From Brachypodium distachyon (lineage: Eukaryota; Streptophyta; Magnoliopsida; Poales; Poaceae), in the NCBI RefSeq assembly GCF_000005505.3, contig NC_016132.3, forward strand, positions 682,001 through 746,000: a stretch of DNA of 64,000 nt. The letters run 5' to 3'. Position 1 is the first letter of the stretch, and each line of letters begins with the position of its first letter. Positions 374 to 27,257 of this stretch are shown in pieces. The notes under the pieces were generated by a model, which saw only the letters and a program-made list of their open reading frames with translations, was not told the DNA's origin and made no database searches. A program made the position numbers and the translations under genes.

Positions 374-2398
374 TAAATCTGCACACATGTATACGTCCGT
401 CCGTACGCAGCAGCGCTTTCCCACTTGCAAACCGGGATCTACTACGGAGTACTATATATATGCAAGTAATTAATTGATGTGTACTGCATAATGCATATAT
501 GGGGTCGTCTGAGATCGAAGTCGGAATCTCCTGCAGATTAGTTTATTCCAGCGGGATCAAATACTGATGCCCCGGACTGCTGATCAATTAGTTTAATTCC
601 AAGAGATTTCCTCAGTATCCATACACGTAGCAAATTCATCTGTCAGTAGCACTCCACCAGTAGTATAGTGGAGTGTACTAAATTTTTAGACGGCATGCAT
701 CGGCCAGCTAGCTCAGTCCCTGATAGTATTAATTAAGGGCTTTGAAATTAGCAGCTCTCCCCTTGTGAAAGGTGTGGATTTGGCTGTTCGATCGTACGTT
801 ACGTAGTTGTATGCGTCGTTGGATCCCGACGCTGTTAATTTAATTAATCTCTCCAATTAACCAAGTCTCGTCGTGTTTGTGCCGCTTTGACAGAAACAGC
901 TATCCTCTCTGTTATAATCTTACGTACGACAAAGTTGGCTAATTAATTAATTAATCATTTGGTTTTACTAATTTATTTACTAGCCAGGAATAAACCAGTG
1001 GTACATATCGTTAATCTGTAAGCAAGTCGTCTGTGTTTATTTGCTACGCATTTAAACAAAACGCCAATTGAGACTAGACTAGCTTAGCTAGGAGATTCCG
1101 TTTTAAAAAAGAGAGAAATTCAGTGGTCGGACAGCCGGCCTAGTTGGATCAGCTGACATGTAAAATTAATATCTTCCAGCTAGCTATCGGTCGACCACGA
1201 CGTACAAGCTAGCAGTGTTCTCAAGTTAATTAATTAACGCCCCCATTCCACTACTGATTGTGTATATATCGATCACACGGGTAATTTATATATATAGAAC
1301 GTACATTGCGTCCTAATTTGACCCCGAGTAAAAATCTAAATCAGCAGTAACCAATAATGACTTTACTATACATCATTGATCTTATTTAGGACGGAGGAAG
1401 TTAATATAATGCCGTCGGCGGCGGGCGATCGACCATGCTTGCGTCGTTGTTAACGCGGCCAGCCGGAGTCCGTCACCGTGCAGAGAAAATGTAACGGCAC
1501 GGCACGGAACGATAACGGGATGTCGTTATATTTGGGAGCTATAGCTAGACTCTAGCTAGGGTTGGGCGGATCGCGTGGTCGTTAAGCCAAAGGGAGACGA
1601 AAAGCTGATCGTCCGATATCGATATCGAGATGCTTTGCCTTGCCTTCATGGATCCCTTGGCTTGGCTTGCAGGCTTTGCTTCAGAGTTATCCATCCATAT
1701 ACATCCGTCGATGTTTGCCTTATCACGCCCCAAACGCACGATTAGAGAATAGTTAATCAACCCTTTGTTGTACGCCAGTGGCTAGCTGCTTTACTTGTCC
1801 AAGTCGATCTCAATTAATTGGTTATTAACCAAAGCTTTCTTTCCATCTTTCCTTCTTCCTTTTCTCCCTTTCCATGCTGCTATGCATGTCCACATGCATC
1901 TCTGTCGTACATCCTAATGCATGCAGCAGCAACTAGCAAGTTTCATCCAATTAAGTGCAACTTTTAAGCAGCCGACATGCAGAAATGCACGGCTAATTCT
2001 AGTACGTCACCGAATCGCAGTCACAGATGAATTATTAAAGGTTCTTCTTATTTTTTTTCAGGAGAAGATCGAGATAGACAGGTTCATTCAACCAGCACGT
2101 ACTCTGTTTTATCATCCCCTTTAATTACCATGTGTTTACACCAACGGAATATTGAAGCATGTAGTACTGCATATATATACTCAGCAGCCTGGAACTTGAC
2201 TTTGTCATGGCAGGCTAGATATTAGTAATTCTCAGGCCGGCCGCCGGATGAAACCATTCAGGTTTCAGAGTCGTGCCTAATTGCAGCCTAATCTTAGGTA
2301 CGTCATAACGTCAATGGTGGGGAACAGAAATTTTGGCACGGACAGACCGTCGACCATTGAATTGAATTGAATTGAAGTTCAAATTGGCCCTTCCATTG

Positions 2399-2639
2399 CG
2401 AACGAGTCTCTAGCCTAGTTGGTTAGGGGATCTAGTAGCACCCCTTTGATTCTGAGGACGCGAATTTCAGACCGAAGGGTTAAAAAAATCTCCTGGTCTG
2501 TCCCATACCAAAGCACAGGTCTAAGACCGGCTTTGATCTCACGTGGCATGAGGTTCAGAGATTTTTTAGACCTGTGTGAGAAGGTCTTCTTCTTTCAAAT
2601 GATACTCGGGGATTTCTTCCCCCCGCGGACCTAGTTTTT
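2399..2639 (+). mobile_element. tRNA-derived SINE with 18-bp target-site duplication
   Basis: A 241-bp insert is flanked by perfect 18-bp direct repeats AAATTGGCCCTTCCATTG at 2381-2398 and 2640-2657, the hallmark of LINE-machinery retroposition. Near its 5' end lies TAGCCTAGTTGG, a perfect match to the RNA polymerase III A-box consensus TRGCNNAGTNGG, followed by GTTAGGGG as in tRNA D-arms. A B-box is weak (GATTCTGAGG about 30 bp further on). The 3' end is T-rich rather than a long poly(A). The family name is unknown to me. Confidence 0.7.
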
Positions 2640-11057: not shown

Positions 11058-11467
11058 ATGCATAGGCGCTCTGCTGCTGCGGCGGTCATCCTGGCTATCA
11101 TATGCTGCTCCCTGCCCTGCTCCATGGCAGTCCAAGGTACGTACGTTCCTCTAGCTAGCTACTACTCAAGTTCTGCAGGCAAGTATTTGTTGTGCATGCG
11201 GTTACAGATGATGGGTGACAAGCTATATATATGTGCACTTGCTGTGCAGTAGTAGTTCATCCGGAGGGAGACCGTCGGGAAGAGCTTCCTCCGTCGCCGT
11301 GGCCCGCGCGGGGGGTTAGATGCGGCCGTTGCATGTCGCCGAATGCAGCAACGACGACGACGGCGTCCGCGCTCCTTACGCTGCACCACCGTAAAAAGAC
11401 CCTGCAGAAGAAGCACGCCGTCGTCGTCGATCTTTACTATACCAAAGCACCACCCATGCTGCCATGA
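11058..11467 (+). CDS. PepA: small secreted proline-rich peptide precursor
   Basis: Exons 11058-11136 and 11250-11467 join in phase 1 to encode 98 residues. Exon 1 is a signal peptide (MHRRS, then hydrophobic AAAAVILAIICCSLPCSMAV) ending in the family-wide Q-G junction. Exon 2 encodes the mature region: a VVHPEGDR start, LPPSPWP, a CGRC (CxxC) pair, and HHRKKTLQKK, the family core with one extra Lys. The tail after the core is the longest of the family (to APPMLP). Codons and layout match the other copies downstream. I do not recognise the family. It resembles precursors of processed signalling peptides: a short secreted protein, a conserved basic motif near the C-terminus and proline-rich spacers. 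Function is not known. Confidence 0.72.
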
Positions 11468-11624
11468 CGTGCCACTAGCCTTGTACTCCTGTCAACCAGC
11501 TGTGTGCTCTTGTTTTGCTTTGATAAATAAAGTTTGCTTTGCGAAATGAGAAAAATAACCGATGGTTTTGGTATTAATTTCTCAGGCGACGACCTATCAA
11601 TGAATACATAAGACGGTAATAATA

Positions 11625-11735
11625 CTCTCTCCAATCCATATTAATTGTCGAAATATTACATGTATCTAGATGTTTTTGGGCATAGATATATACATCCATA
11701 TTTAGACAAATTTGAGATAATTATATATCGGAGGT
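11625..11735. mobile_element. Stowaway MITE (degenerate)
   Basis: The block starts TA-CTCTCTCCAATCC and has the usual Stowaway interior (GTCGAAATATTACATGTATC, then CATATTTAGACAAATTTGAG). The right terminus is worn. It sits between PepA and PepB. Confidence 0.65.
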
Positions 11736-11870
11736 TCACGTGGACGTGGACGTACCGTGGCGGCTCCTGTTCTGGAGCAACTCTCAAACAGTCACCGCGT
11801 GTGTCATTCTCATAAGGCAAAAATTCCAATTCTCCTCTATCGACCGGTCGACAGTCGACAACACAACTTC

Positions 11871-11911
11871 GATTGACCGGGACCTAGCTAGCTATAAATC
11901 GGAGTCTTTGC
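11871..11911 (+). promoter_or_regulatory. PepB promoter: W-box, TATA and GAGTCTTTGCG block
   Basis: TTGACC lies at 11873-11878, GCTATAAATC at 11891-11900 and GGAGTCTTTGCG from 11901. The same order (CGAC...TTGACC...GGAGTCTTTGCG) is seen upstream of PepC and PepE. A CATAAGGCAA block about 55 bp upstream of the W-box is also shared with PepC. The ATG is at 11985, so the TATA-like box is about 90 bp upstream. Confidence 0.55.
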
Positions 11912-11984
11912 GAGGCGATCGGTCCGCACTATCTTCAGAGTAGAAGCTTAAGCACCGGTTGTACCACCACAGCTGAGATAATTA

Positions 11985-12393
11985 ATGGAGCGATCTTCTT
12001 CTTGCTCAGTCGCTCCAGCAGCCGTGGCAATAATCCTGGCCATCATATGCTGCTCCTTGCCATGCTCGGTGGCCATCCAAGGTATGCATATCTAGGTATA
12101 TTGTACAGCAAGATTAAGATTAAGTTTAAGTACTACTTGAACTAGCATATGCAGCAGTAAGTATGTATTGATGCAAGTTAAGTTTACATTTAACACATGA
12201 TTGATGCATGATGTATTTACATGCAGTACATGATCCAGACGGATACCGTCCGGGACCGAGTCCTCCGGCACCGAGAGCCCAGCCTGGGCGTCGTCCATAT
12301 CCAGATCCACGACCACGATGCCCGGGCTGCCCGCTGCCGTCGCCGCACCGCAAGACCCTCCAGCAGCAGCAAATAGTACATACTATCAACTGA
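11985..12393 (+). CDS. PepB: small secreted proline-rich peptide precursor
   Basis: Exons 11985-12081 and 12227-12393 join in phase 1 for 87 residues. Exon 1 is a signal peptide (MERSSSCSVAPAA, core VAIILAIICCSLPCSVA, ending IQ-G/V). Exon 2 begins V-HDPDGYRPGPSPPAPR, is rich in Pro and Arg, carries a CPGC (CxxC) pair, then the core PHRKTLQQQQ and the tail IVHTIN. Donor AAG|GTATGC and acceptor TGCAG|TACATG are clean. Compared with PepA the core lacks the extra Lys and the tail is short. Family function unknown; secretion is inferred from the signal peptide. Confidence 0.75.
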
Positions 12394-12690
12394 TGTATCG
12401 ATGAATATTCACCGGAGACGGGGTGGATATGTATTTTACCCGGCCCTCAAGAGACTGCCTCTCGGAAATTATTTATCCCTTTGAAAGGGGAAATGTTATG
12501 TCATTCTGCCTGGCTGTGAGTTCACCCATCGGCCGTACGTGCTAAGGGCGTGGCATCTAGTACTAGTACTGTGTTCCTAGGGGTCTAGATGAAATTGTGG
12601 AGAGATTGGCTGTATCTCATTCCATCGTTTTATATCCATATTTTGGAATATGTTGCATGAATAAGCTAATATCGTACGCCTTTTTTCTTT
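12394..12690. other. 3' flank of PepB; no gene seen
   Basis: This follows the PepB stop and is probably its 3' UTR plus spacer. It leads into the reverse-oriented LINE remnant. No open frame or repeat stands out. Confidence 0.35.
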
Positions 12691-12699
12691 GACAAGTAA

Positions 12700-12900
12700 A
12701 ATACCTCTTTACTCATTGGCAATCAAAGTTACATCTTTAAGAAGAAGAGGTATAATACTATCAGAGGGATTTTCTACCAAACTAAATCTAGCTAAATAAG
12801 CCAATTCATGAGTAACCTCATTTGCCTCACGGGGACAATGAACAAAGGTAACTTTGACGAGATCAGATGCAAGATAATAATAATCATCAAACACCGCTCC
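12700..12900 (-). mobile_element. LINE remnant: RNase H-like C-terminal domain
   Basis: On the minus strand the frame 12709-12894 reads FDDYYYLASDLVKVTFVHCP, then REANEVTHELAYLAR and SIIPLLLKDVTLIANE. The phrase with PREAN-x-VTHELA-x-LAR is the hallmark end of the RNase H-like domain that terminates many plant L1-type LINE polyproteins. Only about 60 codons remain and I see no reverse transcriptase beside it, so this is a 5'-truncated fragment. Confidence 0.65.
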
Positions 12901-13007
12901 AAGTCCTCATGAACGGCCCTCTTGATTCATAACATCAATCACCTCAGTGCTATCGGAGTCCTACGGTACGCCTTCACACTGAGGAACATGACTCATAGAG
13001 TCTCTTT

Positions 13008-13690
13008 GTATTTTTTAGAGCAACAATCTGGCTTGGCTTTATCGATTCGAGCGACAAAGTACAAAAGATCGATACACGAACGAACACAAATAATAAAGAT
13101 ACTCAACAAAACTAAAAACTTCGTTGTAGTCCTTCGAAGTAAACTTTTCTTGATCCATCATTCGCATCTTGATACTTCTTCACATATTCGTTGACAAACT
13201 TGCAGAATACCATGCTTGCACAAGCTGAACTAACCTCGGAGGTTTTGAAAAGCTGCCCACCTCAAACGGTGAGAACTTAAGATCATTGAACGCACCATGT
13301 CCGGAGTAATACCCTTTGCAAAACAAGCTGTAAAACTGCTTTTCCGTCGATGAATACACAAGAAAAAAGACCAGCAACCCAAAAAAACGTGTCGTGAGAA
13401 TCACTAACTCCATGGCATAGGTTGCAACGTCTACACCAGGACAATGAAGGAGCCAGGACACCAATTTTCTAGACGACGGCGTCTCCATCGCCAAGCTAGA
13501 CGTCACCGAGAAACACACAAAAATCTAACAAAAGAAAGTACCAAAACTTGATGCCAGACATTGATCCGTGGTTCCCCTCGTCTCTTAAAGCCAGATCGGT
13601 CATGAAAGACGAGAGAAACCGCCGGAGATTGAAGTTTCTTCGAAGCTAGACGACGGCGGCTAGGTTTCTCTTAGGAACCGTAATAGACCC
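13008..13690 (-). repeat. Dispersed element, copy 1 (minus orientation)
   Basis: On the minus strand this reads from GAAACCTAGCCGCCGTCG (about 13690) to ...GATTGTTGCTCTAAAAAA (about 13008). A second copy lies at 18527-19160 with the same order of motifs: CCTAGCCGCCG start, GGGGAACCACG, AATGATCTTAAGTTCTCACC, GGTTAGTTCAGCTT and an A-rich end. A frame at 13180-13518 shares FNDLKFSP and RLVQL with the second copy's frame. The A-tail end and the truncated-LINE neighbour at 12700-12900 suggest a non-LTR-type retroelement, but no domain is recognised. Confidence 0.6.
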
Positions 13691-13699
13691 AGGAACTCA

Positions 13700-14200
13700 A
13701 ACAAGGTCTAGCTGCTAAGCCCCTGCTTAGTTAATTTGGGTCATCGGTTGCGTTGTGTGGACGGGCAGCTGGGCTGAAAACCCAGTTTGAGGATCGTGCT
13801 AGGTTGGGCTGAAATTCACTGAGCCGTCGCTAAAGGGTTTCGCAGGTTGCCTTTTTTTTTCTTTGAGAATGTTTCGCAGGTTTGCCTGACTGAGCTGGCC
13901 GGAAGACATGGACAAAGTTGGGCTTTCATTAGGCTTTCGGCCCAAGAAAGCGCGTTGTGACTGATGGCGCTCATAAGAGTTGTCGTGCTGCCTCTAAAAA
14001 AAAAGTTGTCATGCTGAAATCCTTCAAGTTGTGCTAAAATTCACTACTGGGGATTCACTTGACAAACGTAAGTACTCTCGATCGATATCGCTGGAGCTAC
14101 GTATGCACGTACTCCCAGACAATTGCGTGCCAGCTACTTGTCGAGTTGTCGTTGTCATAAGGCAATTAAATCTCCCAAAACCGATCCCTAGCTAGTAGCT
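13700..14200. other. Spacer before PepC; no gene seen
   Basis: This holds no gene that I can support. It ends in the conserved upstream block of the peptide family: GTCGTTGTCATAAGGCAATT from about 14148, which matches CATTCTCATAAGGCAAAAAT upstream of PepB and GTCGTTGTCAAAAGAGACG upstream of PepE. Confidence 0.4.
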
Positions 14201-14205
14201 ACGGT

Positions 14206-14270
14206 AGACCGGTCGGTGAGCCGACAACGACTTTGACCGGCTACAGCGGCTATTGGGAGTCTTTGCGCCA
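14206..14270 (+). promoter_or_regulatory. PepC promoter: W-box block
   Basis: The sequence AGACCGGTCGGTGAGCCGAC is followed by GACTTTGACC (W-box core 14233-14238) and GGGAGTCTTTGCG (14255-14267). The start AGACCGGTCGG recurs exactly at 14625, where it has become joined to the end of PepC exon 1 and serves as the PepD promoter. A TACATAAAC TATA-like box lies at about 14389. Confidence 0.55.
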
Positions 14271-14535
14271 TGAAACCGAGCTAGCACATGCAGCGGCAGT
14301 ACGGTACCGCGCATAGGACTAGTACTCCACTGTTAATGTTTGACCTCTTAATCTCTACTATGCTATGCATGCACGTGTACATAAACTAACGAGGTTACTC
14401 GATCTGTCGATCACAAGCAAGGCAAACGCTTGCTGACTTGTTATCACGTCGAAGCTAGCGTAACTCAGCCCAGTGAGCCCAGCCCACAGCCCCACAGCAG
14501 AGACAATTCTCAACAATCAAGAGGATCGATCATGC

Positions 14536-14727
14536 ATGGAGCCATCTTTTTCTTCAGTGGCACCAGCAGCCGTGGTCATCCTGGCCATCATATGCTGCTC
14601 CCTGCCATGCTCCGTTGCCTTGGAAGACCGGTCGGGAGCCGACAACTTTGACCGGCCAGCGGCTATACTGGTTGCTCCATCAAAGTGTGAAACCGAGCTA
14701 GCACACATGCGGTACAGTACCGCGTAG
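14536..14727 (+). pseudogene. PepC: orphan signal-peptide exon fused to the PepD promoter
   Basis: ATG at 14536 opens a normal family exon 1 (MEPSFSSVAPAA, core VVILAIICCSLPCSVAL, then E). At the exact exon/intron boundary the usual GAAG|GTATG reads GAAG|ACCGG: the intron and exon 2 are gone and the sequence continues directly into the duplicated promoter of PepD. The frame runs on through that promoter, W-box included (GADNFDRP), and stops at 14725-14727, giving a 63-residue open frame with a signal peptide and a wholly new tail ending AHMRYSTA. It lacks the RKTLQ core. Most likely it is a by-product of tandem duplication with a unit of about 419 bp (14206 to 14625). It might be a new secreted peptide if transcribed, or its exon 1 might splice from a cryptic donor. 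Confidence 0.7.
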
Positions 14728-14800
14728 GACGACCAGTCGACCAGTACTCCATATGAGGCTGTGTTTGAGGTAGTACTATATGCACGTGTATATAAACCAA
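14625..14800 (+). promoter_or_regulatory. PepD promoter (duplicated from PepC promoter)
   Basis: AGACCGGTCGGGAGCCGACA begins at 14625, with the W-box TTGACC at 14648-14653. The tract GTGAAACCGAGCTAGCACA (about 14687-14705) and the TATATAAACCAA box (14789-14800) repeat the PepC upstream region. The first 100 bp overlap the PepC open frame. Confidence 0.6.
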
Positions 14801-14889
14801 TGAGGTTACTCGATCTGTCGATCAAAAGGCAAGGTAAGCAGAGACGCAGGAGTACAATTTTCATCGACAATTAAGAGGATCGATCGACC

Positions 14890-15424
14890 ATGGAGCCATC
14901 TTCTTCTTCTTCAGTCGGAGCAGCAGCCGTGGTAATCCTGGCCATCATGTGCTGCTCCCTGCCATGCTCCATGGCCGTCGAAGGTATGCACGTAATATGT
15001 CATACTGTAATACTCCCTCCAATTCTAAATTAATTGTTGTCGAAATATTATATGTATTTAGACATTTTTTAAGAATAGATATATTCATATTTGGATAAAT
15101 TTGAGTTAAGAATTTAGAATCACAGAAAGTACTGTATCACGAGATTGCGTACTCGTACTATAGCATCCATGCAGTAATATGCATATGTAAATATTTTATG
15201 CAATTAAGCTTAAGTGACCATTGTGCATATTATAAATTCATGCAGTTAAAGGAAGCCATGTGGGGCCGCGTCCTCCGGCGCCGACGGGCCACCCGGCACC
15301 GCATGAATGCTGGGGTTGCGCGCCGCCGCCGCTGCCGCCGCCGGCACTTGCTGCCGCGGCGCCGCACCGCAAGACCCTGCAGCAGCAGCAGCAGCAGCAG
15401 CCGCCGCCTGTCCCTTACGTATGA
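14890..15424 (+). CDS. PepD: small secreted proline-rich peptide precursor
   Basis: Exons 14890-14983 and 15246-15424 join in phase 1 for 90 residues. The signal peptide is MEPSSSSSVGAAA plus VVILAIMCCSLPCSMAV, close to PepC. Exon 2 begins V-KGSHVGPRPPAPTGHP, has a CWGC (CxxC) pair, then APPPLPPPALAAAA and the core PHRKTLQ followed by a polyglutamine run (CAG repeats) and PPPVPYV. The intron holds a Stowaway-like MITE. The CAG tract after the core is likely length-variable between accessions. PepA, PepB and PepD form a CxxC subgroup distinct from PepE-G. Confidence 0.74.
15013..15132. mobile_element. Stowaway MITE in the PepD intron
   Basis: TA-CTCCCTCCAATTCTAAATT at 15011 begins a standard Stowaway; the right end (AATTTAGAATCACAGAAAGTA) is its inverted partner with a few changes. 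The insertion accounts for most of the extra length of this intron (262 bp against 82-145 bp in four paralogues). Confidence 0.75.
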
Positions 15425-15780
15425 TCAAAACACTAGCACTGATTGTGTAAAGACGAAGTTGTTTTCTGTTTGTAATTAAGGCTATTCGGGCGGCCCTTAT
15501 ATAATTGGGGGCTTTTACTTTGTTGTATTCTGGCCCCGCTAGCTGAGCTTTCTCTAGCCCTCACCACACAGTTGGGCCATCTTTCTTTTGTTGTATTTTG
15601 CAATATAGAACGACATTTAAAAACGAAGAAGTGCTTCTTCTGTTTTACTCCTGGTATAAAAAGATCTGAGAGATATGCTTTGTTTAATCCCGCCTGCAAC
15701 GAGCTTGCAATCACAATGATCAGAGAATCTGTTTATTGATGGTCAGCTACAGATTACAGATCGATCTCAAACAGTCTACT
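15425..15780. other. 3' flank of PepD; no gene seen
   Basis: Probable 3' UTR and spacer. I see no open frame, repeat or relic worth naming before the PepE promoter. Confidence 0.35.
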
Positions 15781-15850
15781 TGTCGTTGTCAAAAGAGACG
15801 AAATTTCCAGGTTCCCTTAATTCCCTATTGACCGATCCAGACCGGGAGGA

Positions 15851-15892
15851 CTTTGACCATTGGAGTCGTTGCGACTTGCGAGTTATATATAC
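15851..15892 (+). promoter_or_regulatory. PepE promoter: W-box, GGAGTCGTTGCG and TATA
   Basis: GGGAGGACTTTGACC holds the W-box at 15853-15858. TGGAGTCGTTGCG follows at 15861 and TTATATATAC at about 15883-15892. Spacing and order match PepB and PepC. A second TTGACC lies some 28 bp upstream, within CCCTATTGACCGATCC. Confidence 0.55.
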
Positions 15893-16109
15893 CGAGCCCT
15901 TCATCAATACGAGTCTTCAGCACGGGTCTACTATTACGTATAACTAGTACTACTGGAACGACTTAATTAATGTTCTGCTCCTTACTACGAGTGTACTCCA
16001 AGGAGTATAAAATTCGTATTCGATCCCAAGGCAAGGCACACACCGTCCCCCTGCAAACCTTACAAAACCACAGCTTACATACAGCAGATAATTAGTACTC
16101 CAAAGGATC

Positions 16110-16449
16110 ATGGCGCGAGCTTCTTCTTCTTCTTCCATCGGGCTCAAGCGCGGCGTTGTGCTCCTTGCTCTCATATGCTGTTTCTCGTTGGCGGAGGCCC
16201 AAGGTACGGAATTAATATTCTACGTTAAGTTGTGGTTGATCATTGATATATATGATCGATATGATCTTATATACACATGATGCAGTTCTTCATCCGGATG
16301 GAAACCGGGAGCCGTCGGTTCCCCCGTCGCCGCAGTCCGGGAAGCAGTTCGGGCAGGCGCCGTCCGAAGCTCCGCCGTCGCCGCCGCCACCGCCGGCAAC
16401 GTTTGCACCGAACCGCAAGACACTGCAGGCTGTTGCGGGCTTCCATTGA
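16110..16449 (+). CDS. PepE: small secreted proline-rich peptide precursor
   Basis: Exons 16110-16203 and 16286-16449 join in phase 1 for 85 residues, with the shortest intron of the family (82 bp). The signal peptide is MARASSSSSIGLKR plus GVVLLALICCFSLAEAQ-G. Exon 2 begins V-LHPDGNREPSVPPSPQ, then a proline-rich spacer (SEAPPSPPPPPATFA), the core PNRKTLQ and the tail AVAGFH. There is no CxxC pair. The HPDG, PPSP and RKTLQ landmarks are the clearest here, making this a good reference member. The tail (A-V-A-x-F-H) is shared only with PepF. Confidence 0.77.
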
Positions 16450-17100
16450 TTACACGCGCGTATGTATGAAGTATGAAGCACTGCTGAGCATGATGACCGA
16501 ATTAGATAAAGATGTTGTGTGTTTGTGCATGCGCCAGCCACACCTAGCTACCTGCTACCGGCCGGTGTCGATCAGAGTCTCATTTTCTTTCCGTGTTTCT
16601 ACTGAACCTCGAGGACCTCGATCTGGTTGATAAGTTACACTGTGAAAGTTGTTTGCAAGCCTGCCTAGGCAATATATGTGTAACTTACATAATTGTAAAC
16701 CTATTGAGATGTTGTATCATTTTTATCTACAATACAAAATCAGTTTTGCTATATATCTCTAAGACGAGTGAGAAATAAGTATGTCTATGTCGTCGATGCA
16801 AACATCAACTACGTGCAAGTGCAAATGACGAGAAAATAATTAATTCTAGAACTTGGAGTAGAGCACCGCGATGTACGTACATGTTCATCCTTGTCTTCTT
16901 TCTTGAACTTCTGTTTGGAAGATCATTTCTGAACTTAGCTTAATTAGCTGCTAGCTCCTGAATTTTCAGAAAAAAAAGATAGCATGTTCTCCAGCGTTTT
17001 GGACATGCATGTGGAGACACACGCGGAATGTCCACGCACACAGCACGTACTAGAACTGGCGCCACGCGGCCACGGGCACAAACATACACATGCATGCATG
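16450..17100. other. Spacer between PepE and PepF; no gene seen
   Basis: No gene is supported. A short stretch near 16921-16945 (GATCATTTCTGAACTTAGCT) resembles the GATCATTTCTGAACTTTAGC motif that is repeated in the X1 intron (21062 and 21259), hinting at a common small repeat or old duplication. Confidence 0.4.
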
Positions 17101-17127
17101 TATGCTGAATTTCCCAAAACACCCCTG

Positions 17128-17304
17128 TTGACCCCTGGACGACGACTTTGACCATTATTTGGAATCCTGTATGCGAGTCGTCGCCAAGAAGAGGAGAAGA
17201 GAAATTCCCTCTACCGATCTAGTTTTGACCATCTGCCACTCATCTGTACTCCGTATGTGACTGTCCCATATATTTCTACATGTGTGCATCGATCCTCTAT
17301 AAAA
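17128..17304 (+). promoter_or_regulatory. PepF promoter: three W-boxes and TATA
   Basis: TTGACC occurs at 17128-17133, 17148-17153 (within GACGACGACTTTGACC) and 17225-17230. A TATAAAA box begins at about 17298, roughly 70 bp before the ATG. GCGAGTCGTCGCC (about 17174) is a worn form of the GAGTCTTTGCG block. Confidence 0.55.
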
Positions 17305-17369
17305 TGCGCTAGAATTGATCACAACTAATTAAGCCGGGCGGAGACTGGAATTAAAATCGATCAAATCAT

Positions 17370-18105
17370 ATGGCGCGTTCGTCTTCGTCTTCTTCTTCTT
17401 CCTTGGCACGCGCCGTGGCAATGCTGCTTCTCATCACATGGATCTGCTCTTCCTTGGCTTCGGCGGCGCCCAAAGGTACACCCATCCATCCGGCCGGGCT
17501 TTTTTTTTTTTTACGAAATTAAGGAAGAGTATAATACAGAACAGAACAAAAGGCGAGGCTATACGTGTTAGTATATTTTTTAGTCACTAGTGTTTTTGCT
17601 ATTTGAGAGTTTTGGGTGTTCACCCAAAACACTTAAAAACCCAAATACTAGTGTTTTTAAAAAAAACACTAATTTGAGAAGTGTTTTAATTTGGTAAAAA
17701 ATGGAGTGTTTTGTTGGGAAAACTAGGAATAATCCCCTCCAAACCCTTCCTATCAAACAATCATTTGAGGTTTGCAGTGTTTTTCAATTTGGAGTGGTTT
17801 ATATCTTAGAAAACACTTAAAAACTCTAGTAGCAAACAGGGTCTAAAGGGGAAAAATAAAACAGCAGGGCCGGGCTTTATCATCATAACCTTCTGTCTCC
17901 TTCTACACTTACGTCCGGAATTAATTAATGATGGTCAATTGTTGCAGGTGCTCCGGCCGGAAACCGTGTGCCAATAATGACTCCTCCGTCGCCGCGCTTC
18001 CCGTCGCCGAGGCGGCCAGGCCAGGCGCCGTTCGTCGCTCCGCCGCCGCCACTGGCAACGTTTGCACCAAATCGCAAGACCCTGGCTGTTGCGAGCTTCC
18101 ATTGA
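17370..18105 (+). CDS. PepF: small secreted proline-rich peptide precursor
   Basis: Exons 17370-17475 and 17948-18105 join in phase 1 for 87 residues. The signal peptide is MARSSSSSSSSLAR plus AVAMLLLITWICSSLASAAPK-G. Exon 2 begins G-APAGNRVPIMTPPSPRFP, so HPDG has changed to APAG. PPSP, RRPGQAP and APPPPLATFA lead to the core PNRKTLA (Q to A) and tail VASFH. No cysteine is present in the mature region. It is closest to PepE in the C-terminal half. The intron (472 bp) is enlarged by an inserted element. Confidence 0.74.
17500..17880. mobile_element. Insertion in the PepF intron, possible MITE
   Basis: The intron contains self-complementary AT-rich sequence: TTTGGGTGTTCACCCAAA at about 17629 is a near-perfect palindrome, and GTGTTTT/AAAACAC motifs recur in both orientations between 17587 and 17830. 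Paralogous introns lack this block. The ends were not resolved, so the boundaries and class are uncertain. Confidence 0.4.
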
Positions 18106-18520
18106 TCATCGATCCTGCGTACGCTTGTATACGTACGTACTATGAAGTACAGTATGAACCACTGATGCACGGCCCAATTGGATGAAGATGTTGTTGTATG
18201 TTTGCATGTGCGCCTGTATAGGCATGGCCACACCTATTTAATTAACGGTCAACTAACTAGTTAGCGGTCAACTAACGGTAGTGAAATATTTATACCCTAC
18301 GCATAATTTGAGTGACAAATATGGAATTTCTGCATCCAATGTGCTGCAATATGCCTGCACATATATGAGTAATAAGATGTGTTATGCTTTCTCTTATGAT
18401 TTTAACATTAATTTTGCCTTACGAACGGCTCTGATCCACGCGGGTGCCACTGGTTCATGCATGCATGCGTTTTTATATTCATGATCTTTGAACGATTATT
18501 ATTGTGTCTCATTATACATG
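18106..18520. other. 3' flank of PepF; no gene seen
   Basis: Probable 3' UTR and spacer, leading into the second dispersed element. Contains a direct GGTCAACTAAC repeat near 18246-18275. No gene supported. Confidence 0.35.
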
Positions 18521-18526
18521 TATGGT

Positions 18527-19160
18527 TTTTTAGAACAACGATCTGCCTTTATTTATTCAACGAATAAAGTACATCTGATAGAAAAAACTAAAACGATAAC
18601 AAAGATTTTGGATAAATTAAAAGTTACATCAAAAATCTTTGAAGCCAACTTCTCTAACTGCGTCTTTTGCATATTGATGTTTCTCCAAATCTCAGGTGAC
18701 GAAACAGAAGAAGACCAAACCTACATAAGCTGAACTAGCCTTGTAGGTTTTACTGAGCTGCATGAGCCATCCACCCCAGCGGGTGAGAACTTAAGATCAT
18801 TAAACGTGCGGTGGCCGGGGACACACCTGTCGCAAGACAGGTTGTCAAACCATTGAATCATCGCCGAACCGATGAGAAAGAAGACCAAAATCACGAAATT
18901 ACGAGCCGTGAGATCCACAAATTTTATGGAGTAGACCATGATAGCCACGCCAGAACAGGGATGGAGCCGGGAGACCAAAAATCCGAACGTTATCGCCTCC
19001 ACCGTCAAGACGCCGTCGCCAAGGATACACAAAACCTTATAAAAAGGTACTAAGACGATGGCCAGATGTTGATTCGTGGTTCCCCTCACCTCCTGGTGGC
19101 CAATAGGCTACCGGAGATGAGGGGAACCGACGAAGACGGCACCAATGGTTTTGCTCCTTG
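18527..19160 (-). repeat. Dispersed element, copy 2 (minus orientation)
   Basis: This is the partner of the element at 13008-13690, same orientation. It shares the CCTAGCCGCCG start, GGGGAACCACGAATC, AATGATCTTAAGTTCTCACC and the terminal TTGTTCTAAAAAACC. The frame 18721-19089 shares FNDLKFSP and RLVQL with copy 1. The two copies bracket PepC to PepF and could act as substrates for unequal exchange. Confidence 0.6.
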
Positions 19161-19193
19161 CGGCGGCTAGGGTTTCACGAACTCTGGATATTA

Positions 19194-19306
19194 CTTCCTC
19201 CGTCCCATATTAAGTGACTTTTTATTACATGTATCTAGACGCATTTTAGACATAGATACATTCATATTTGGGCAAATTTGGGTCACTTAATATGGGACGG
19301 GGGAAG
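19194..19306. mobile_element. Stowaway MITE
   Basis: The left end is TA-CTTCCTCCGTCCCATATTAA and the right end TTAATATGGGACGGGGGAAG-TA. The termini are inverted repeats of about 22 bp with a TA target duplication. The interior has the usual ACATGTATCTAGACGC. Confidence 0.85.
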
Positions 19307-19309
19307 TAT

Positions 19310-19780
19310 ATATGTATGTAATATCTGTTCCGTGCTTAGGCGTTGCCTAAAATCCGTGCTTAGAAAATGCAAAACAAGGGAACAGCCAAACAGCCCAAAA
19401 AGCCAGCCTAAAACCTTGCTCTACACGAGAAAACTGGAAAACCTTGCCTAAAATCTGGCAAAGTTTTTGCCAACTCTGGGCTACTTTACGCCTTACGGTA
19501 GTGACCTAGCCTTGCACCCTCCTGTCCCCTGCTTAGGCGTTGGGCCTTTGGGCCGCGACAACGGGCCTCAAGCCTGTCGACGGACCTGCATTAGCGTACG
19601 CATGCATGTGTTCTCAACGGCGTTCGCTCAAAAAAAAAGTGTTCTCAACGGCTAGCATCACGACTGTAGATCTTCAGACATGCATATTCATATCCTAAAG
19701 GAAGATTACAGAAATTAATTAGTGAAGCACGGAGCATAGCCGCAAGGATCGGCGACTCTGATTTATAATGTGTTGTCCTG
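19310..19780. other. Spacer before PepG; no gene seen
   Basis: Contains GCTTAGGCGTTGCCTAAAAT-like short repeats between about 19336 and 19545 but no gene or relic that I can name. Confidence 0.35.
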
Positions 19781-19790
19781 TTGACCGATA

Positions 19791-19807
19791 GAGGGACGAC
19801 TTTGACC
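19791..19807 (+). promoter_or_regulatory. PepG promoter: paired W-boxes
   Basis: TTGACC at 19791-19796 and again at 19802-19807 within GGGACGACTTTGACCACC. The GACGACTTTGACC block is identical to that of PepF. The ATG is about 100 bp downstream; no clear TATA box was found. Confidence 0.5.
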
Positions 19808-19902
19808 ACCAGCGCCGCTAATATCGAGAAGATAAGTTTGAGCCTACCTACATATCTTCAGTGTAGGAAGCGCACAGCACAGCAGCATTACGGATGATTC
19901 AT

Positions 19903-20345
19903 ATGGAGCTAATCTCCTCCTCCTCCTCTTCTTCTTCTTCGCTCGCACGCAGCGGCGTCGCCTTCCTAGCTCTCACCATATGCTGTTCCATGGCATTTTG
20001 CTCGGCGGCGGCGGCGGCGGCCCAAGGTAATTACTCCAACTAAGGGTGTTTATTTACTGTATTTATATGCAAGTGCAAATGCAGTAAGTTCACAATGACG
20101 ATTGATTCATGATACGTATATGTATTAATGTATATATGTTATGTGTACGGATTGCAGATGCAGTAGATCATCCGGACGGAGGCCATGTGCCAGTTAATCC
20201 TCCCCCGTCGCCGTGGTTCCCGTGGCCAAGGCGGCCGGGAAAGGCGCCGCTCTTCGTTCTGGCGCCGCCACCGCCATTGCCGGAGACGAAGACGCTCGCA
20301 GGGCCGCACCGCAAGACCCTGCAGCAGAAGACTGTTGCGAATTAG
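19903..20345 (+). CDS. PepG: small secreted proline-rich peptide precursor
   Basis: Exons 19903-20026 and 20164-20345 join in phase 1 for 101 residues. An in-frame ATG at 19894 would add three residues. The signal peptide is MELI plus a Ser run, LARSGVAFLALTICCSMAFCS and an Ala run ending AQ-G. Exon 2 begins V-DHPDGGHVPVNPPPSPWFP, followed by WPRRPGKAPLFVLAPPPPLP, the core GPHRKTLQQ and tail KTVAN. Two acceptors six bases apart (after CAG at 20157 and at 20163) are both in frame; I chose the second because it gives the family's V-x-HPDG start, and the first would add two residues (D-A). No CxxC pair. Confidence 0.75.
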
Positions 20346-20670
20346 TAGTAGTAACTTTGTTTGAGATCAATCAATCAGTGGTCATTTCTTCCCCCACATT
20401 ATTGTAGGCTGGCCACTGATAGCCTATATGTACGTACACGTGGCGTGACTCTGTGTGTAACTTGCTTCAGATGCCTTTTCTTTAATTTTTCCCCACATTG
20501 TAATCTTTTTGTGACTCTTAATATTTGAGATGCTAATTGACTGCCCTGCTAGTGTGTGTGAGGCCGGTTCGCTTGTTAATTTGTTAATAAGTTAGACTTG
20601 AGATGTTCTGATGTAAGTGACGCGTCAGTAAGAAACGTACGTGTAAGCTAATACAGAGATCGATGTAGTT

Positions 20671-20828: not shown

Positions 20829-21491
20829 ATGGAAGTAAAGCAGCAGCAGCAGCAGCGACGATACTGCCGCTCCTTCCTCGTCCATACGCTGCTGCTGCTG
20901 CTGTTCCTGACCATTTTCCCGGTGCTCAACGCCGGCTTACTCCTCACCGGAGGTAACGCCGCCACCGGCCTCCTCTTTACTGCTTCACAAATCATAAGCA
21001 GAGAAGTACAGCGCTGTGTTTATCCCCTTTATCTCCGATTTTCTGAATTTTATGTTTCCACGATCATTTCTGAACTTTAGCTTAGCATGGTCTACAGATG
21101 TATGTAAGAAGAAGCTTCGTTTCTTCTGACTGTCTGTCTGAATGTTCAACTGTTGGTCTCGATCAATTCTGTAGGAGAAATGTCTACAGCTGGGCGAGAC
21201 GGCGGCGGTTCTTCTGTCTGTCTGAATGATCAATTCTGTAGGAGAAATGTCTACAGACGATCATTTCTGAACTTTAGCTTAGTATGGTCTACGGACTACA
21301 GATAGCAGTGTGTATGTAAGTTGAAGCTTCGGTTCTTCGGTCTGTCTGAATGTTCAACTGTTGGTCTCAATTCTGTAGGAGAAAAGTCTATGGGAGGGCG
21401 AGACGGTGGCGGTTCTCCTCCGACACCGGCGTCCAGCGAGGACCCTCACCAGACTTCCTCGATGCCGCTGTCGCCGGACAAAGAAGGCTAG
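20829..21491 (+). CDS. X1: small secreted Gly/Pro-rich peptide precursor (second family)
   Basis: Predicted exons 20829-20952 and 21379-21491 join in phase 1 for 78 residues. Exon 1: MEVKQQQQQRRYCRSFLV, then hydrophobic HTLLLLLFLTIFPVLN and AGLLLTG, a signal peptide or anchor with a polyglutamine N-region. Exon 2: G-EKSMGGRDGGGSPPTPAS, SEDPHQTSS and a tail ending SPDKEG. X2 has the same exon 1 ending (LLTG-G) and shares MGGR-x-GGG-xx-PP-x-P-x-SS-x-DPH. The intron contains an extra decayed copy of the exon 2 start, so other acceptors are possible. The P-x-SS-x-DPH stretch faintly recalls CLE-type ends (P-x-G-x-D/N-P-x-H), but this is too weak to assign. Unrelated in sequence to PepA-G. Confidence 0.6.
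21061..21450 (+). repeat. 197-bp tandem duplication covering the X1 exon 2 start
   Basis: GATCATTTCTGAACTTTAGC begins at 21062 and again at 21259. Each unit continues through TGTCTGAATGTTCAACTG, TTCTGTAG|GAGAAA-GTCTA and GGGCGAGACGG-GGCGGTTCT. Only the second unit continues into an open exon 2; the first has a decayed version. Part of the unit (TTCTGTAGGAGAAATGTCTA) occurs a third time at about 21232. Confidence 0.75.
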
Positions 21492-22225: not shown

Positions 22226-24414
22226 TCATTCTGAGAAACTACTTAACTCGGAAGATTGCCAGGAATCTGCAGCAGGGGCGTTGCCATCCCCACAGAAGAA
22301 CGGCTCAGGAGGTATATGCAGATCGTCGATGCCATCTTCGAGCATCTCTAACACCCTGCTCATCATCGGTCGATCATGTGGCCTCATCTGGATGCACCAG
22401 AGGCCAACAATGCACAGCTTCCTCTCCACTTGATGGATACCAACAGCCTCCGAAATCTCACTCACCTCTTGCCGAGTGAGTTGATTATACACCCATGCTG
22501 GGTAATATGTCTGGCTTCTTGCTGCTTGTTGATCCACGTTCCTCCGACCCCCAGCCATCTCCAGCAATAACATCCCGAAGCTATAAACATCAGACTTGCA
22601 CGATATAGCGCCAAAGCTACGGGATATCATCTCGGGAGCTATGTAGCCAACTGTTCCTCGCGCAGCACTCACCGGCAGAAAGCTGTTGTCCCTTGGGTAT
22701 AGTTTGGCAAGCCCAAAGTCAGCAATTTTTGGAGTGAAGTCATTGTCTAACAGGATGTTGTGCGGCTTGATGGCGAAGTGTAATATCTGCATATCACAAC
22801 CTCGATGCAGGTAGTCGATCCCTCTGGCAATGCCCAAAGCAATCTCATTGAGCTTGTCCCAGGAGAAACTCTTCTCAGATGGGAAGATATACTTATCAAG
22901 AGATCCATGGGGCATGTACTCATAAACAAGAGCCCTCCTCATTTCCTCCGAGCAGAAACCCACTAGACGCACTACATTGACATGGTGAATGCTTCCAATG
23001 CTGGACACTTCACTAATGAATTCTTCTCCGTCGGACGTGGAGTTGACCAACATTTTGGTGGCAACATGGGCATCGCCAGGAAGCACACCTTTATACACAC
23101 ACCCATAGCCTCCTTGACCCAGCTTCTCTCTGAAGCGGTTAGTGACCGCAGTGATATCTGTGTAGGCGTACCTTGTCGGGCCAAGAGCTAGTTGCATCTG
23201 GAGGAACTTCTCAACTGCGCCAATTGATATCTTTGTTTTCCAGTATTTTCAGGCAAGGAAGGTCAGTACGGACAATGGTGCAAAGAGTAACCTGGATAGT
23301 ACTGCAAACACTGCGCAAACAAGATTGCAGACTCGAGTTACATGTATACAATTATGTAGCCTTAATGATTAAATTATGCAATTCAGTCATACCGATAATG
23401 AACTTCACAGTACTTAAAGCATATACTATGATAGCTACTGCCCAATATAATTTAGTTTGATGGGGGTAGTTATTTACACATCCCAAGAAATGCATGTCGA
23501 TGCCAACAACCGCCGAAAACTGATTTTGGATGCTTGAACTAGACATCTGTTCGTGGAAGTCACTGCAAGTTATACATGGATTGGTAAGAAGATAAACAGC
23601 TTTGTGATAAGACAATCCAATTTGAGGTGCAAAATGCAACCTGGGAGAAGTATCTAGTTCACAGAGAGCAGACTCACCTCATTAAATCATTCAGGCATCT
23701 GTTGATGATCCAAGAACTTGTCCAGGCATTATCTACAGGAAATCTAACAGCAAACCCAGTCTTCATAAATTTTACGATATCTTCATAATCATAACTTGCA
23801 TCATCTGTTGTCCTCACACGCCAACTTCCCAAAGGAGTCATGGCCAAGTATCCACAAGAAGGCTCAACATTTCGAACCAGAAAAGCGAGCGCAGTAGTCA
23901 ATACATAAACAAAAGAACTATTTGTACTCTGGCAAGTGACAGGCCTATAAATAACATTATCTTTTATCATCCGTGAACAACTCACAAAGGCAGTCCATTT
24001 ATCTGCATCCGGCAATAACAGGATCCTGTTCTCTGATTGCAATCCATAGATATAAGGATGTTGATTCCTCTCAGGAATAGGGCAGCTGATATCATCCGAA
24101 CTGGCATCAACAACCCAGAAAATACGGTCACTGTAGGAGATGTTAGTCACGATGTATCTTCCTGTGTTGATGTAAACTATAGCCTGGCTATCAGTACAAA
24201 CTAGCTCATATTCTTGAACACCACAACCAGGTGGATCACTTTGCAAACGGAAAGGATACTGGATGTTTTGGAGATGTCCACAGGAGAAAGAGGGGCAAAC
24301 TGCTTGCCCCAGAATATCTGCTGCTTCACTCTTCGTTAGAAGAACTGAAAGTGTGGAGGAGATTGCTAATGCATGGAGTATAACAGAATGAAGAAATGCA
24401 GCAGAGTTCGTCAT
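22226..24414 (-). pseudogene. RK1: LRK10-like receptor kinase, dead (type A)
   Basis: Minus-strand exons 24414-23678, 23562-23393 and 23301-22226 give the same three-exon, phase 2/phase 1 structure as RK4. Exon 1 has a signal peptide and a GUB_WAK-type cysteine-rich ectodomain (CPSFSCGHLQNIQYPF, GCGVQEYELVC). Exon 3 gives the end of the transmembrane helix and a kinase with G-loop GQGGYGCV, Lys in VATKML, DFGLAK and CKSDVYSFG. Two lesions: an in-frame TGA at 23251-23249, just after the membrane helix, where RK4 has His (LFLAHKYW against TFLA-stop-KYW); and the catalytic loop reads HFAIKPHN instead of HFDIKPHN, losing the catalytic Asp. A product would be a membrane-anchored ectodomain without kinase. 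Confidence 0.85.
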
Positions 24415-24918
24415 GACTCATGAGAACACTTCACAGATGCAAGATCAAGCATGGAAGGTGGCACCCAATTTAAGGAGAAGGCTTGCCTGAGGGTTGACCA
24501 ATATATTATGGTCTCAGAATGATATAGGAAGATTTTGATGCATATAGACAAGAGAAAGAAAAATCAAACCTAGTGTCCTTCCTGACTGCTGGGTAATCTA
24601 TTACCAGTCATTTGGTCTTGTTAGTCAAACCAGTAGGCATAATCTTTGACTTTTTTATAGCAAAGATAAGCTTTGACTTATAGTGCATTTCCTTTGGCAT
24701 AGCAGGAAGCCAGGAACCAATAATTCTCTTCCATGGAAGAAAATGAAGAATCCGTCCAACTATTTCATGGGTCCATCATGGCATACTTAACAGTGACAAA
24801 CTGACCAAAGCCAAGCTTAGTAAGATCTTTCTCCTTTTTTATTCCAACATTATAAGAAATCCAGTTTTGTGGGCATAGCTTCATCTCCTTGCCTCCAATC
24901 TTCATTTTATCACAGAAA
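24415..24918. promoter_or_regulatory. Divergent promoter region between RK1 and RK2
   Basis: The ATGs of RK1 (minus, 24414) and RK2 (plus, 24919) are 504 bp apart, so both promoters and 5' UTRs must lie here. Head-to-head pairing of two LRK10-like subtypes is known in cereals (LRK/TAK pairs). I did not find a convincing shared motif with the RK3/RK4 spacer. Confidence 0.55.
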
Positions 24919-27257
24919 ATGTTTGAAGGTTTGGTTGTAGCTCTGATATTCTTAGTTCTTAATGATGGAATCAACAGGGTCACAGCAAGTGGAGATGGAG
25001 ATTTTTTCCATACCTGCATACCATCCAGGTGCAGTGAAGGCAGAATAGAAATCCGATTTCCGTTCCGCCTTACAACCAACCCCAAATCCTGTGGAGCACC
25101 TGGCATGGAGCTATCATGTTCTAGGGAAGCAGATACAATCCTACTTCACCCAATTCTTGGATTGTGCAAGGTCACTGCAATCGACTACAGTTCTGGTACT
25201 CTTACTGTCATCGCGCTTGAAGAATCATGGACTCGGTGCCCGCTTCAGAAGATCTCTACCACCAACCTATCAACTGGCGTATGCATACCTTACGCCCTTG
25301 AAACTGCAACCCTGATACGCTGTTCAAGAGAGTTCATACCAAAATACGAAGCCAGTATTTTACAAGGTTTGGGGGACAGTATTGTTGGCCCAATCTCTTG
25401 CCTGAGCAACACAAGCCAGTTTGTATATTTGATGGCCAGTGGTGAATCCATGTCTCTTCTTCCCTTAGATTGTACAGTGGTCTCCAACGGCATTCCGATA
25501 CCAGATGATTATCATAGCAAATCTGCTGCATCGTTCCCCAAGTTCCCCAAAAGGGCCAAAAGAATCATCACATCTGCTGAGGCAACGTTGAGTTGGTCGA
25601 TTCCTGACATTGCCAACATTTGTATAGAATGCGAGCAAAAAGGGCATCACTGTGGATTCAGCTCACAACGGAGGCAAGCATTCTGCAAGCACAATGGTAA
25701 TGGCTCATCTCCAATAATCAGTTAACCTATTTTCTTCTCACTTGTTCAAGAATTGTAAGTAAAAGTGCACATTTACGTTCGTTCTAAGATTGAAATATCT
25801 ATGATTGATAATGATATGTGTTCATCGCAAATCAGGATGCTGTCATGTCTGTACAATTCTTTAATGTCATGCTCTCATGAGTTGAATCGCTTTTCCATTC
25901 TGCCAAATAAAAAATGGCATGAGTTGGTGCTTTTTTTTCACCTAAAGAACAGTGGTAGACTTTTTTGTTTGCTTACAAAAAATAGAAATAAGAAGTTTGC
26001 CTGTCTATATTATTCTGCACCCAAAATCTAAATGCTTATTCCATGCACGCAGGTTCCCGGGTCAAAGTCATTGCAGGTATTGTACATACATCCTTTTCTC
26101 TAATCTATATAAGAGACATGAAAGAAAGGTTTTTAACCTAAGTCTTACTCATTATTTCCCTATGTTTTGCTTATTTAGCAACATCGTCAGTAGCCACATG
26201 TGTGGTTCTCTTGTTGGCGGCAGCCACTGCACTATATCTGTCCCTAAAATCAAAGACTGATGAAGAGGTACGTTTGAAGATCGAAATATTTCTCAAGGCA
26301 TACGGCACATCAAAACCAACAAGGTACACATTCTCCGAAGTTAAGAAAATAACAAGACGATTCAAAGATAAACTGGGGAACGGTGGCTTTGGAAGTGTAT
26401 ACAGAGGTCAGCTAGCAAGTGGAGTGCCTGTGGCAGTAAAGATGCTGGAGAACTCAAAGGGCAATGGAGAAGATTTCATAAATGAAGTTGCGACCATCGG
26501 TAGGATCCACCATGCCAATGTGGTTCGTCTCTTAGGATTTTACTCTGAAGGAACAAGGCGTGCTCTTATTTATCAATTCATGCCTAACGGATCACTGGAG
26601 AAATATATATTCGCACATGAATCAGATATTTTTCGGGAACTATTAGCACCCAACAAAATGCTGGAAATAGCATCAGGCATTGCACAAGGAATCGAATACC
26701 TGCATCAAGGGGGCAATCAGCGCATCCTCCACTTCGACATCAAACCTCACAACATCTTGCTTGACTGCAGCTTCAATCCAAAGATTTCAGACTTTGGCCT
26801 TGCAAAGCTGTGTGCAAGGGAACACAGCATCGTCACACTGACTGCAGCTAGAGGAACAATGGGCTACATTGCCCCAGAACTATATTCTCGTAACTTTGGG
26901 AGAATATCCAACAAGTCCGATGTTTATAGCTTTGGCATGCTAGTGTTGGAAATGGTGAGTGGGAGAAGGAACTCGGATGCATGGATCGAGAACCAAAATG
27001 AGCTTTACATGCCAGAGTGGATATATGAGAAAATCATCACGGAGCAAGAACTGGAATCAACAAGGGAGATGAAGCAAGAAGAGAAGGAGATAGTAAGAAA
27101 GCTGGCTATTGTGGCACTATGGTGCATCCAGTGGAACCCAAAAGATCGCCCATCTATGCCGAAAGTGTCAAACATGTTAACAGGAAGCTTGCTGAGCCTA
27201 ACAATGCCTCCTAAGCCATTTGTATCGTCTCCGGGCTACATTACGCGACAAATTTAA
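24919..27257 (+). CDS. RK2: LRK10-like receptor kinase (type B)
   Basis: Exons 24919-25696, 26053-26076 and 26179-27257 join in phase 1 throughout for 626 residues; the middle exon is only 24 bp (encoding SRVKVIA) and is identical in size in RK3. Signal peptide: MFEGLVVALIFLVLNDGINR. Ectodomain: cysteine-rich GUB_WAK-type (FFHTCIPSRCSEG, RFPFRLTTNPKSCGAPGMEL) with a second Cys cluster near the end (CIECEQKGHHCGF). Membrane helix: VATCVVLLLAAATALYLSL at about 272-290. Kinase: G-loop [53 protein letters not shown], all intact. It is a plasma-membrane Ser/Thr receptor kinase of the family that includes the wheat LRK10 rust-resistance-linked kinase. Ligand unknown. Divergent from RK1. Confidence 0.88.

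What the first reader, a model, noticed from the sequence alone, without database searches (positions are those of the whole stretch)
11058..20345. Tandem array of seven genes for an unrecognised family of secreted proline-rich peptides
Seven copies share one plan seen directly in the sequence: exon 1 is a signal peptide ending in a split Gly/Val codon, a phase-1 intron follows, and exon 2 has V-x-HPDG, PPSP, a proline-rich spacer and the core (P/H)(H/N)RKTLQ near the C-terminus. Precursor size is 85-101 residues. This is how families of processed signalling peptides usually look, but the core does not match CLE, CEP, IDA/PIP, PSK, PSY, RALF, RGF or Pep motifs that I know. The copies are too short for many gene callers.
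Basis: partly seen in the sequence, partly recalled or inferred. Interest (0 to 1): 0.88.

Follow-up and report, generated by a model that had tools for sequence, protein, structure and literature searches.

The report
Grass family of secreted proline-rich peptides
A row of six small genes in the grass Brachypodium appears to make secreted, proline-rich proteins that share a short, well-kept tail; relatives turn up in wheat, barley and other cool-season grasses, and they look like precursors of a signalling peptide for which no name was found.

Summary
The array is real. The window is Brachypodium distachyon. Six complete two-exon genes (A, B, D-G) plus an exon-1-only remnant (C) lie at 11058-20345, so 'seven copies' should read six. 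All six have a phase-1 intron and encode 85-101 residues: hydrophobic leader, PP(S/A)P block, proline-rich spacer, (H/N)RKTLQ-like core (exact in 4 of 6). Three capped protein searches returned 35 proteins, all from Brachypodium, Triticum, Aegilops, Hordeum, Alopecurus, Festuca, Puccinellia or the window itself. PPxP and core are the best-kept parts after the leader. E/F/G group with Triticeae and Poeae proteins to the exclusion of A/B/D, suggesting old diversity. No Pfam, NCBIfam or PDB match is convincing. Elsewhere in the genome only one broken copy was identified. Best reading: secreted pre-pro-peptides releasing a C-terminal HRKTLQ signal, built like PROSCOOPs but with another motif. Expression, secretion, processing and receptor are inferred. 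W-box-rich promoters hint at defence induction.

The parts
11058..11136 (+). copy A exon 1 (leader)
   Evidence: identical protein P0001 = BRADI_2g01103v3
11250..11467 (+). copy A exon 2; core HHRKKTLQ at 11384-11407; 98 aa in all
11985..12081 (+). copy B exon 1
12227..12393 (+). copy B exon 2; core PHRKTLQ at 12343-12363; 87 aa
   Evidence: public entry BRADI_2g01104v3 (P0013) has a different exon 1
14536..14626 (+). copy C: exon-1-only remnant, runs straight into the duplicated promoter of D
14890..14983 (+). copy D exon 1
15246..15424 (+). copy D exon 2; core PHRKTLQ at 15362-15382; 90 aa
16110..16203 (+). copy E exon 1
16286..16449 (+). copy E exon 2; core PNRKTLQ at 16408-16428; 85 aa
17370..17475 (+). 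copy F exon 1
17948..18105 (+). copy F exon 2; core PNRKTLA at 18067-18087; 87 aa
19903..20026 (+). copy G exon 1
20164..20345 (+). copy G exon 2; core PHRKTLQ at 20304-20324; 101 aa
11873..11878 (+). TTGACC (W-box core) 112 bases before copy B
14647..14653 (+). TTTGACC 243 bases before copy D
15828..15858 (+). pair of TTGACC elements before copy E
17128..17230 (+). three TTGACC elements before copy F
19781..19807 (+). pair of TTGACC elements before copy G

Best explanation
The array encodes six small pre-pro-peptides of a grass (Pooideae) family. The leader (exon 1) sends the protein into the secretory pathway and is removed (inferred from sequence). The rest has no predicted fold. Prolines of the PPSP block and spacer are probably hydroxylated and perhaps glycosylated (inferred). 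An apoplastic protease then frees a short C-terminal peptide around (S/T)ALxPHRKTLQ, which acts as a ligand for a cell-surface receptor (inferred). Tandem duplication keeps several isoforms, most likely as a defence-linked signalling set under WRKY control (inferred from TTGACC/TTTGACC elements before most copies).
For: Two-exon plan with phase-1 intron in 6 of 6. Relatives with the same ends in three Pooideae tribes (taxonomy). Over 36 aligned members, PHRKTLQ is kept at Pro 33, His 29, Arg 34, Lys 36, Thr 31, Leu 28, Gln 28 of 36; PPxP at 35, 36, 36 of 36; Gly 35 of 36; most spacer columns are weakly conserved. Pair-summed pN/pS in the Brachypodium copies: exon 1 0.60, middle 0.99, core 0.52; without A 0.65, 0.85, 0.31. 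AlphaFold on P0003 gives one helix, the leader (5-24), and no other secondary structure, pTM 0.28, which argues against a folded enzyme or knottin. Barley genes ZWY2020_031247, _031249 and _031250, on contigs of one and the same length, fall in three different supported groups of the tree, one of them the E/F/G group. TTTGACC lies within 300 bases upstream of 5 of 7 copies (4 of the 6 complete ones) against 0.19 expected (0 of 20,000 draws); all W-box cores 10 against 2.24 expected (P 0.00165).
Against: No transcript, peptide or receptor data. The core is degenerate in A (extra Lys) and F (Gln to Ala). The G.R....PPSP block is about as well kept as the core, so the active part may lie there or there may be two peptides. 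The promoters descend from common duplicates, so the W-box count is not independent; A has none within 300 bases, and in the upstream alignment a stretch around the TATA box scored slightly above the W-box block (0.65 against 0.63), which aligned only in C-F. pN/pS in the core rests on few, non-independent changes. The relatives were found with profiles that include the core, which favours core-bearing hits; P0026 lacks the core in its annotated frame and was left out.
Confidence: 0.55

Rival explanations
1. Small secreted proline/arginine-rich antimicrobial peptides: the mature basic, proline-rich chain acts directly on microbes rather than on a plant receptor.
For: Leader, high Pro, basic C-terminal core, tandem array and W-box-rich promoters would fit; disordered chains are usual for proline-rich antimicrobials (recalled).
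Against: Conservation sits in two short blocks, one with a near-fixed RK, while spacer composition and length drift; one member at least has a glycine-rich rather than proline-rich spacer (P0019). Direct-acting peptides rarely need a fixed short sequence (recalled).
Confidence: 0.2
2. Small hydroxyproline-rich or arabinogalactan-type cell-wall peptides with a structural role.
For: SP, AP, PPSP and PPPP motifs are substrates of prolyl hydroxylation (recalled).
Against: By eye, no repeated SPPPP/YxY units and no hydrophobic C-terminal GPI tail in the six models; the conserved HRKTLQ end is not explained.
Confidence: 0.15
3. The active product is the block just after the leader (V..DG.R....PPSP), or the precursor yields two peptides, with PHRKTLQ a second ligand or a recognition site for the processing protease.
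For: Gly and PPxP of that block are as well kept as the core; in A and F the core is altered.
Against: In D the N-block is the degenerate one and the core is intact; active peptides of CLE, CEP, IDA and PIP precursors lie near the C-terminus (recalled).
Confidence: 0.25
4. Chance reading frames in GC-rich, proline-coding DNA, with no gene product.
For: Exon 2 has 61-73% GC, which by itself favours Pro codons; no RNA evidence here.
Against: Matching splice signals in 6 of 6, relatives in several genera, and fewer amino-acid-changing than silent differences per site in leader and core.
Confidence: 0.03

Closest known systems
PROSCOOP / SCOOP family of Brassicaceae (PMC6382344: abstract start and passages seen; PMC7846792: passages seen)
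   Same: Lineage-limited family (called Brassicaceae-specific); precursors of 72-117 aa with signal peptide; two or three exons; two tandem clusters, the larger with transposon vestiges and unannotated copies; divergent members with a short active peptide.
   Different: SCOOP epitopes are serine- and glycine-rich (SxS motif recalled); here the core is HRKTLQ and the spacer mostly proline-rich. The core motif differs and no receptor is known here; no direct sequence comparison with PROSCOOPs was run.
CLE, CEP, PIP, IDA peptide families
   Same: Small secreted precursors with a short conserved C-terminal stretch and often proline-rich surroundings (recalled).
   Different: CEP and PIP domains carry SGPS and GxGH (passage of PMC9532867), and IDA, PIP and CEP peptides often an Arg-His-Asn motif (passage of PMC7846792; CLE recalled); none of the six models has these. 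No Pfam match above threshold.
PRP669, 'Pro-rich Protein Group 669' (66 in wheat, PMC9532867; 4 in tomato, PMC10515272; table rows seen)
   Same: Secreted proline-rich proteins of unknown function, classed as neither Cys-rich nor post-translationally modified.
   Different: Present in tomato, whereas no hit outside Pooideae was returned here; the PRP669 profile was not available, so identity could not be tested.
ZIP1 of maize (passages of PMC11371470)
   Same: Orphan immune peptide of a grass.
   Different: Its precursor lacks a signal peptide and is reported to have evolved from a retrotransposon; motif not compared here.

Membership tests
PROSCOOP/SCOOP | Serine/glycine-rich C-terminal epitope with SxS | tested here: not met
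   By eye: the C-terminal region of the six models and of the aligned relatives is HRKTLQ-like. SxS recalled.
PROSCOOP/SCOOP | Secreted precursor of about 70-120 aa, 2-3 exons, tandem arrays | tested here: met
   leader judged from sequence and the helix, no signal-peptide predictor run
CEP/PIP | SGPS and GxGH at the C-terminus | tested here: not met
   Absent from the six translations, by eye
CLE/IDA | C-terminal peptide with Arg-His-Asn-type ending | tested here: not met
   Absent from the six translations, by eye
RALF, knottin, defensin and other Cys-rich peptides | Four or more conserved cysteines in the mature chain | tested here: not met
   C..C pair after the leader in 9 of 37 rows; in the alignment one half-conserved spacer Cys (14 of 29) and no other outside the leader
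PRP669 | Match to the MtSSPdb PRP669 profile | not testable with these tools
   Profile not held; only its name and counts seen
Extensin/HRGP | Repeated SP3-5 with YxY | tested here: not met
   No such repeats in the six models, by eye
Processed signalling peptide (as a kind) | Secretion and proteolytic release of a short active peptide that binds a receptor | not testable with these tools
   Needs peptidomics and bioassay

The most novel reading that the evidence does not exclude
A Pooideae-specific phytocytokine family, the temperate-cereal counterpart of the SCOOPs: wheat, barley and Brachypodium keep a tandem set of WRKY-driven precursors that release HRKTLQ peptides seen by a still unknown receptor, with two conserved blocks that may yield two peptides per precursor.
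Probability: 0.3. Interest if true: 0.78.

Novelty: new member of a known kind. Interest (0 to 1): 0.52.

Why it matters
Few peptide signals are known that are peculiar to temperate cereals (recalled). A family defined by a seven-residue core, present in wheat and barley and compactly arrayed in a tractable model grass, can be tested at once with synthetic peptides and array deletion. It also suggests that annotation misses or mis-models such genes: in the three protein searches only A and B of the six appeared with named Brachypodium records, and B with a different exon 1.

Tried and rejected
Rejected: seven intact copies (C has no exon 2). Further paralogues in the genome: protein searches with G, P0002, B, P0016, P0011 and P0020 gave, outside the window, one clear B-like copy on contig C6 near 13.08 Mb (L013), with a stop in exon 1, and otherwise weak matches (best 9.5e-4, 1.5e-3) that I took for proline- or leader-driven. 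Of these weak ones only L004 was read (bases 1-3000 of 3153, by eye: no family gene seen); the rest were not inspected. Queries P0016 and P0011 found nothing even in the array, so genome searches are not exhaustive. The looser (P)NRKTL codon pattern gave 25 matches against 49 for its reversed control; two lie in the array, the rest are taken as chance.

Searches that led nowhere: Rfam none; Pfam only sub-threshold hits (DUF7096 in 6 of 31 members, best 0.0049; Mucin in 1, 0.02; others weaker); NCBIfam five families in 1 of 19 members each, best 0.051; PDB two hits at E 1.7 and 1.9. The ten literature searches showed no description of the family; one search listed 25 of 780 papers and 12 of 27, and the library lacks most subscription papers. 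The string RKTLQ occurs in 5 papers, unrelated as judged by title and abstract start. Relatives outside Pooideae were not returned, but each protein search scored only about 7,990 candidates, so absence from rice or maize is not shown.

Rows dropped before counts: one search left out P0029 (odd exon 1, E 0.11) and P0001, P0009, P0013 (the window's own copies A, E, B); one search also left out P0026 (no core). Gene H beyond the array has no Pfam match and was not filed as a member.
Full report
What is there. The window lies in a 271-Mb genome at C3:682001-746000. Copy A is letter for letter BRADI_2g01103v3 of Brachypodium distachyon, and copy B matches BRADI_2g01104v3 except that the public entry has a different exon 1. 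Between 11058 and 20345 six genes stand head to tail on the + strand. Each has a short exon 1 (79-124 bases), an intron of 82-472 bases that splits a codon after its first base, and an exon 2 of 158-218 bases. Donors all read AAG|GTA and acceptors all end TGCAG; introns are 55-72% AT and second exons 61-73% GC. A seventh, exon-1-only piece at 14536-14626 runs without intron into a copy of the promoter that drives D.

The proteins (85-101 aa) begin, in most copies, with a serine-rich stretch, then a hydrophobic leader, a block with PP(S/A)P, a spacer rich in proline, and a core HRKTLQ or NRKTLQ followed by a variable tail.

Relatives. Three profile searches of 5.8 billion proteins returned 16, 25 and 24 hits at E cut-offs of 1, 10 and 10, 35 different proteins in all; the weakest, P0029, reached only 0.11. 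Three are copies of the window itself; the other 32 come, by the names given, from Triticum aestivum, T. urartu, T. turgidum, Aegilops tauschii, Ae. geniculata, Hordeum vulgare, Alopecurus aequalis, Festuca glaucescens and Puccinellia chinampoensis. The five species looked up (Brachypodium, Hordeum, Alopecurus, Festuca, Puccinellia) are Pooideae of the tribes Brachypodieae, Triticeae and Poeae; Triticum and Aegilops are placed there from memory. Each search scored only about 7,990 candidates, so distant relatives may be missed.

Conservation. In 36 aligned members the best-kept positions outside the leader are Gly (35/36), PPxP (35, 36, 36 of 36), a PP pair in the spacer (33/36, 33/35) and PHRKTLQ (33, 29, 34, 36, 31, 28, 28 of 36); most other spacer columns vary strongly. 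Core-bearing hits are favoured because the query profiles contain the core, and P0026, without core, was left out. Among Brachypodium copies the pair-summed pN/pS is lowest in the core and highest in the middle: 0.52 against 0.99, or 0.31 against 0.85 without A; exon 1 gives 0.60 and 0.65. These sums rest on few and non-independent changes.

History. A maximum-likelihood tree of 37 rows places E, F and G with Aegilops, Triticum, barley, Festuca and Puccinellia proteins on one branch (98/96); A, B and D lie outside it, B and D unresolved and A on a long branch. Well-supported branches force at least two changes of the Brachypodium label. Many inner forks are weak (16 of 34 drawn open) and the root is a midpoint. 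Barley genes ZWY2020_031247, _031249 and _031250, close in numbering and on contigs of the same length, fall in three different supported groups. The simplest reading is an old mixed array kept in barley and Brachypodium; synteny itself was not tested.

Regulation. TTGAC[C/T] cores number 10 in the 300 bases before the seven starts against 2.24 expected from the rest of the window (P 0.00165), and TTTGACC stands before 5 of 7 (C, D, E, F, G; 0.19 expected, 0 of 20,000 draws). Of 12 TTTGACC sites on the + strand of the window, 8 lie at 14232-20670; the - strand has 2. This is the W-box, the WRKY target (recalled). The promoters are duplicates of one another, A has no W-box core within 300 bases, B has only TTGACC, and an upstream alignment scores a stretch around the TATA box slightly above it, 0.65 against 0.63.

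Structure. AlphaFold on Festuca P0003 with 26 sequences gives a helix at 5-24 and nothing else (mean pLDDT 68.2, pTM 0.28): a leader followed by a chain without predicted fold.

How it most likely works. Shown: gene plan, family, pattern of conservation, tandem arrangement. Inferred: expression, leader cleavage, secretion, proline modification, protease release of a C-terminal peptide around PHRKTLQ, a receptor, and a defence role. PROSCOOPs are the nearest in plan (14 genes, 72-117 aa, 2-3 exons, tandem clusters with transposon vestiges; passages of PMC6382344) but not in motif. Three rivals stay open: direct antimicrobial action, wall structure, and a product from the N-terminal block.

Known or new. 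A wheat survey found 4,981 putative secreted peptides, of which 64% (3,191) were not confirmed by known peptide domains, and named two new families, DYY and CRP8CI, neither of which fits here by its description (passages of PMC9532867). Its PRP669 group could not be compared. No paper describing this family was seen in the ten searches listed.

Noticed in passing
window 20829-21491 (+): A further small two-exon frame just past the array (H): hydrophobic leader, phase-1 junction, then GRDGGGSPPTP...DPHQTSSMPLSPDKEG (read by eye); a TTTGACC lies at 20670. No Pfam match and no HRKTLQ; a partial repeat of its exon-2 start lies at 21163-21215. Could be an unrelated secreted peptide or a very divergent relative.
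   Followed up: partly
G000 contig C6 about 13084757 (locus L013, 1146-1540): A dispersed broken copy resembling B, with a stop in exon 1 and the CPGC...PHRKTLQQQ end still readable.
   Followed up: yes
family rows: A C-x-x-C pair (often CPGC) after the leader in 9 of 37 members, among them A, B and D, and in none of the 11 rows of the E/F/G group; function unknown.
   Followed up: partly
window 22226-27257, 44945-50617: Receptor kinases of the wall-associated/LRK10 type (name recalled): GUB_WAK_bind and kinase domains in the four frames run against Pfam; the rest judged from the ORF list. Receptor genes near a peptide array; no evidence of a link.
   Followed up: no
window 35435-37357 (+): Single open frame with a thaumatin domain and a kinase domain (Thaumatin 1.6e-53, kinase 1.9e-49), PR5K type (recalled).
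   Followed up: no
window 42209-63855 (-): Several related F-box/beta-propeller genes on the - strand (one tested; others by resemblance).
   Followed up: no
P0009: The frame of copy E read from its intron into exon 2 is held from 3 contigs, the longest 1,716 bases; their origin is not given.
   Followed up: no
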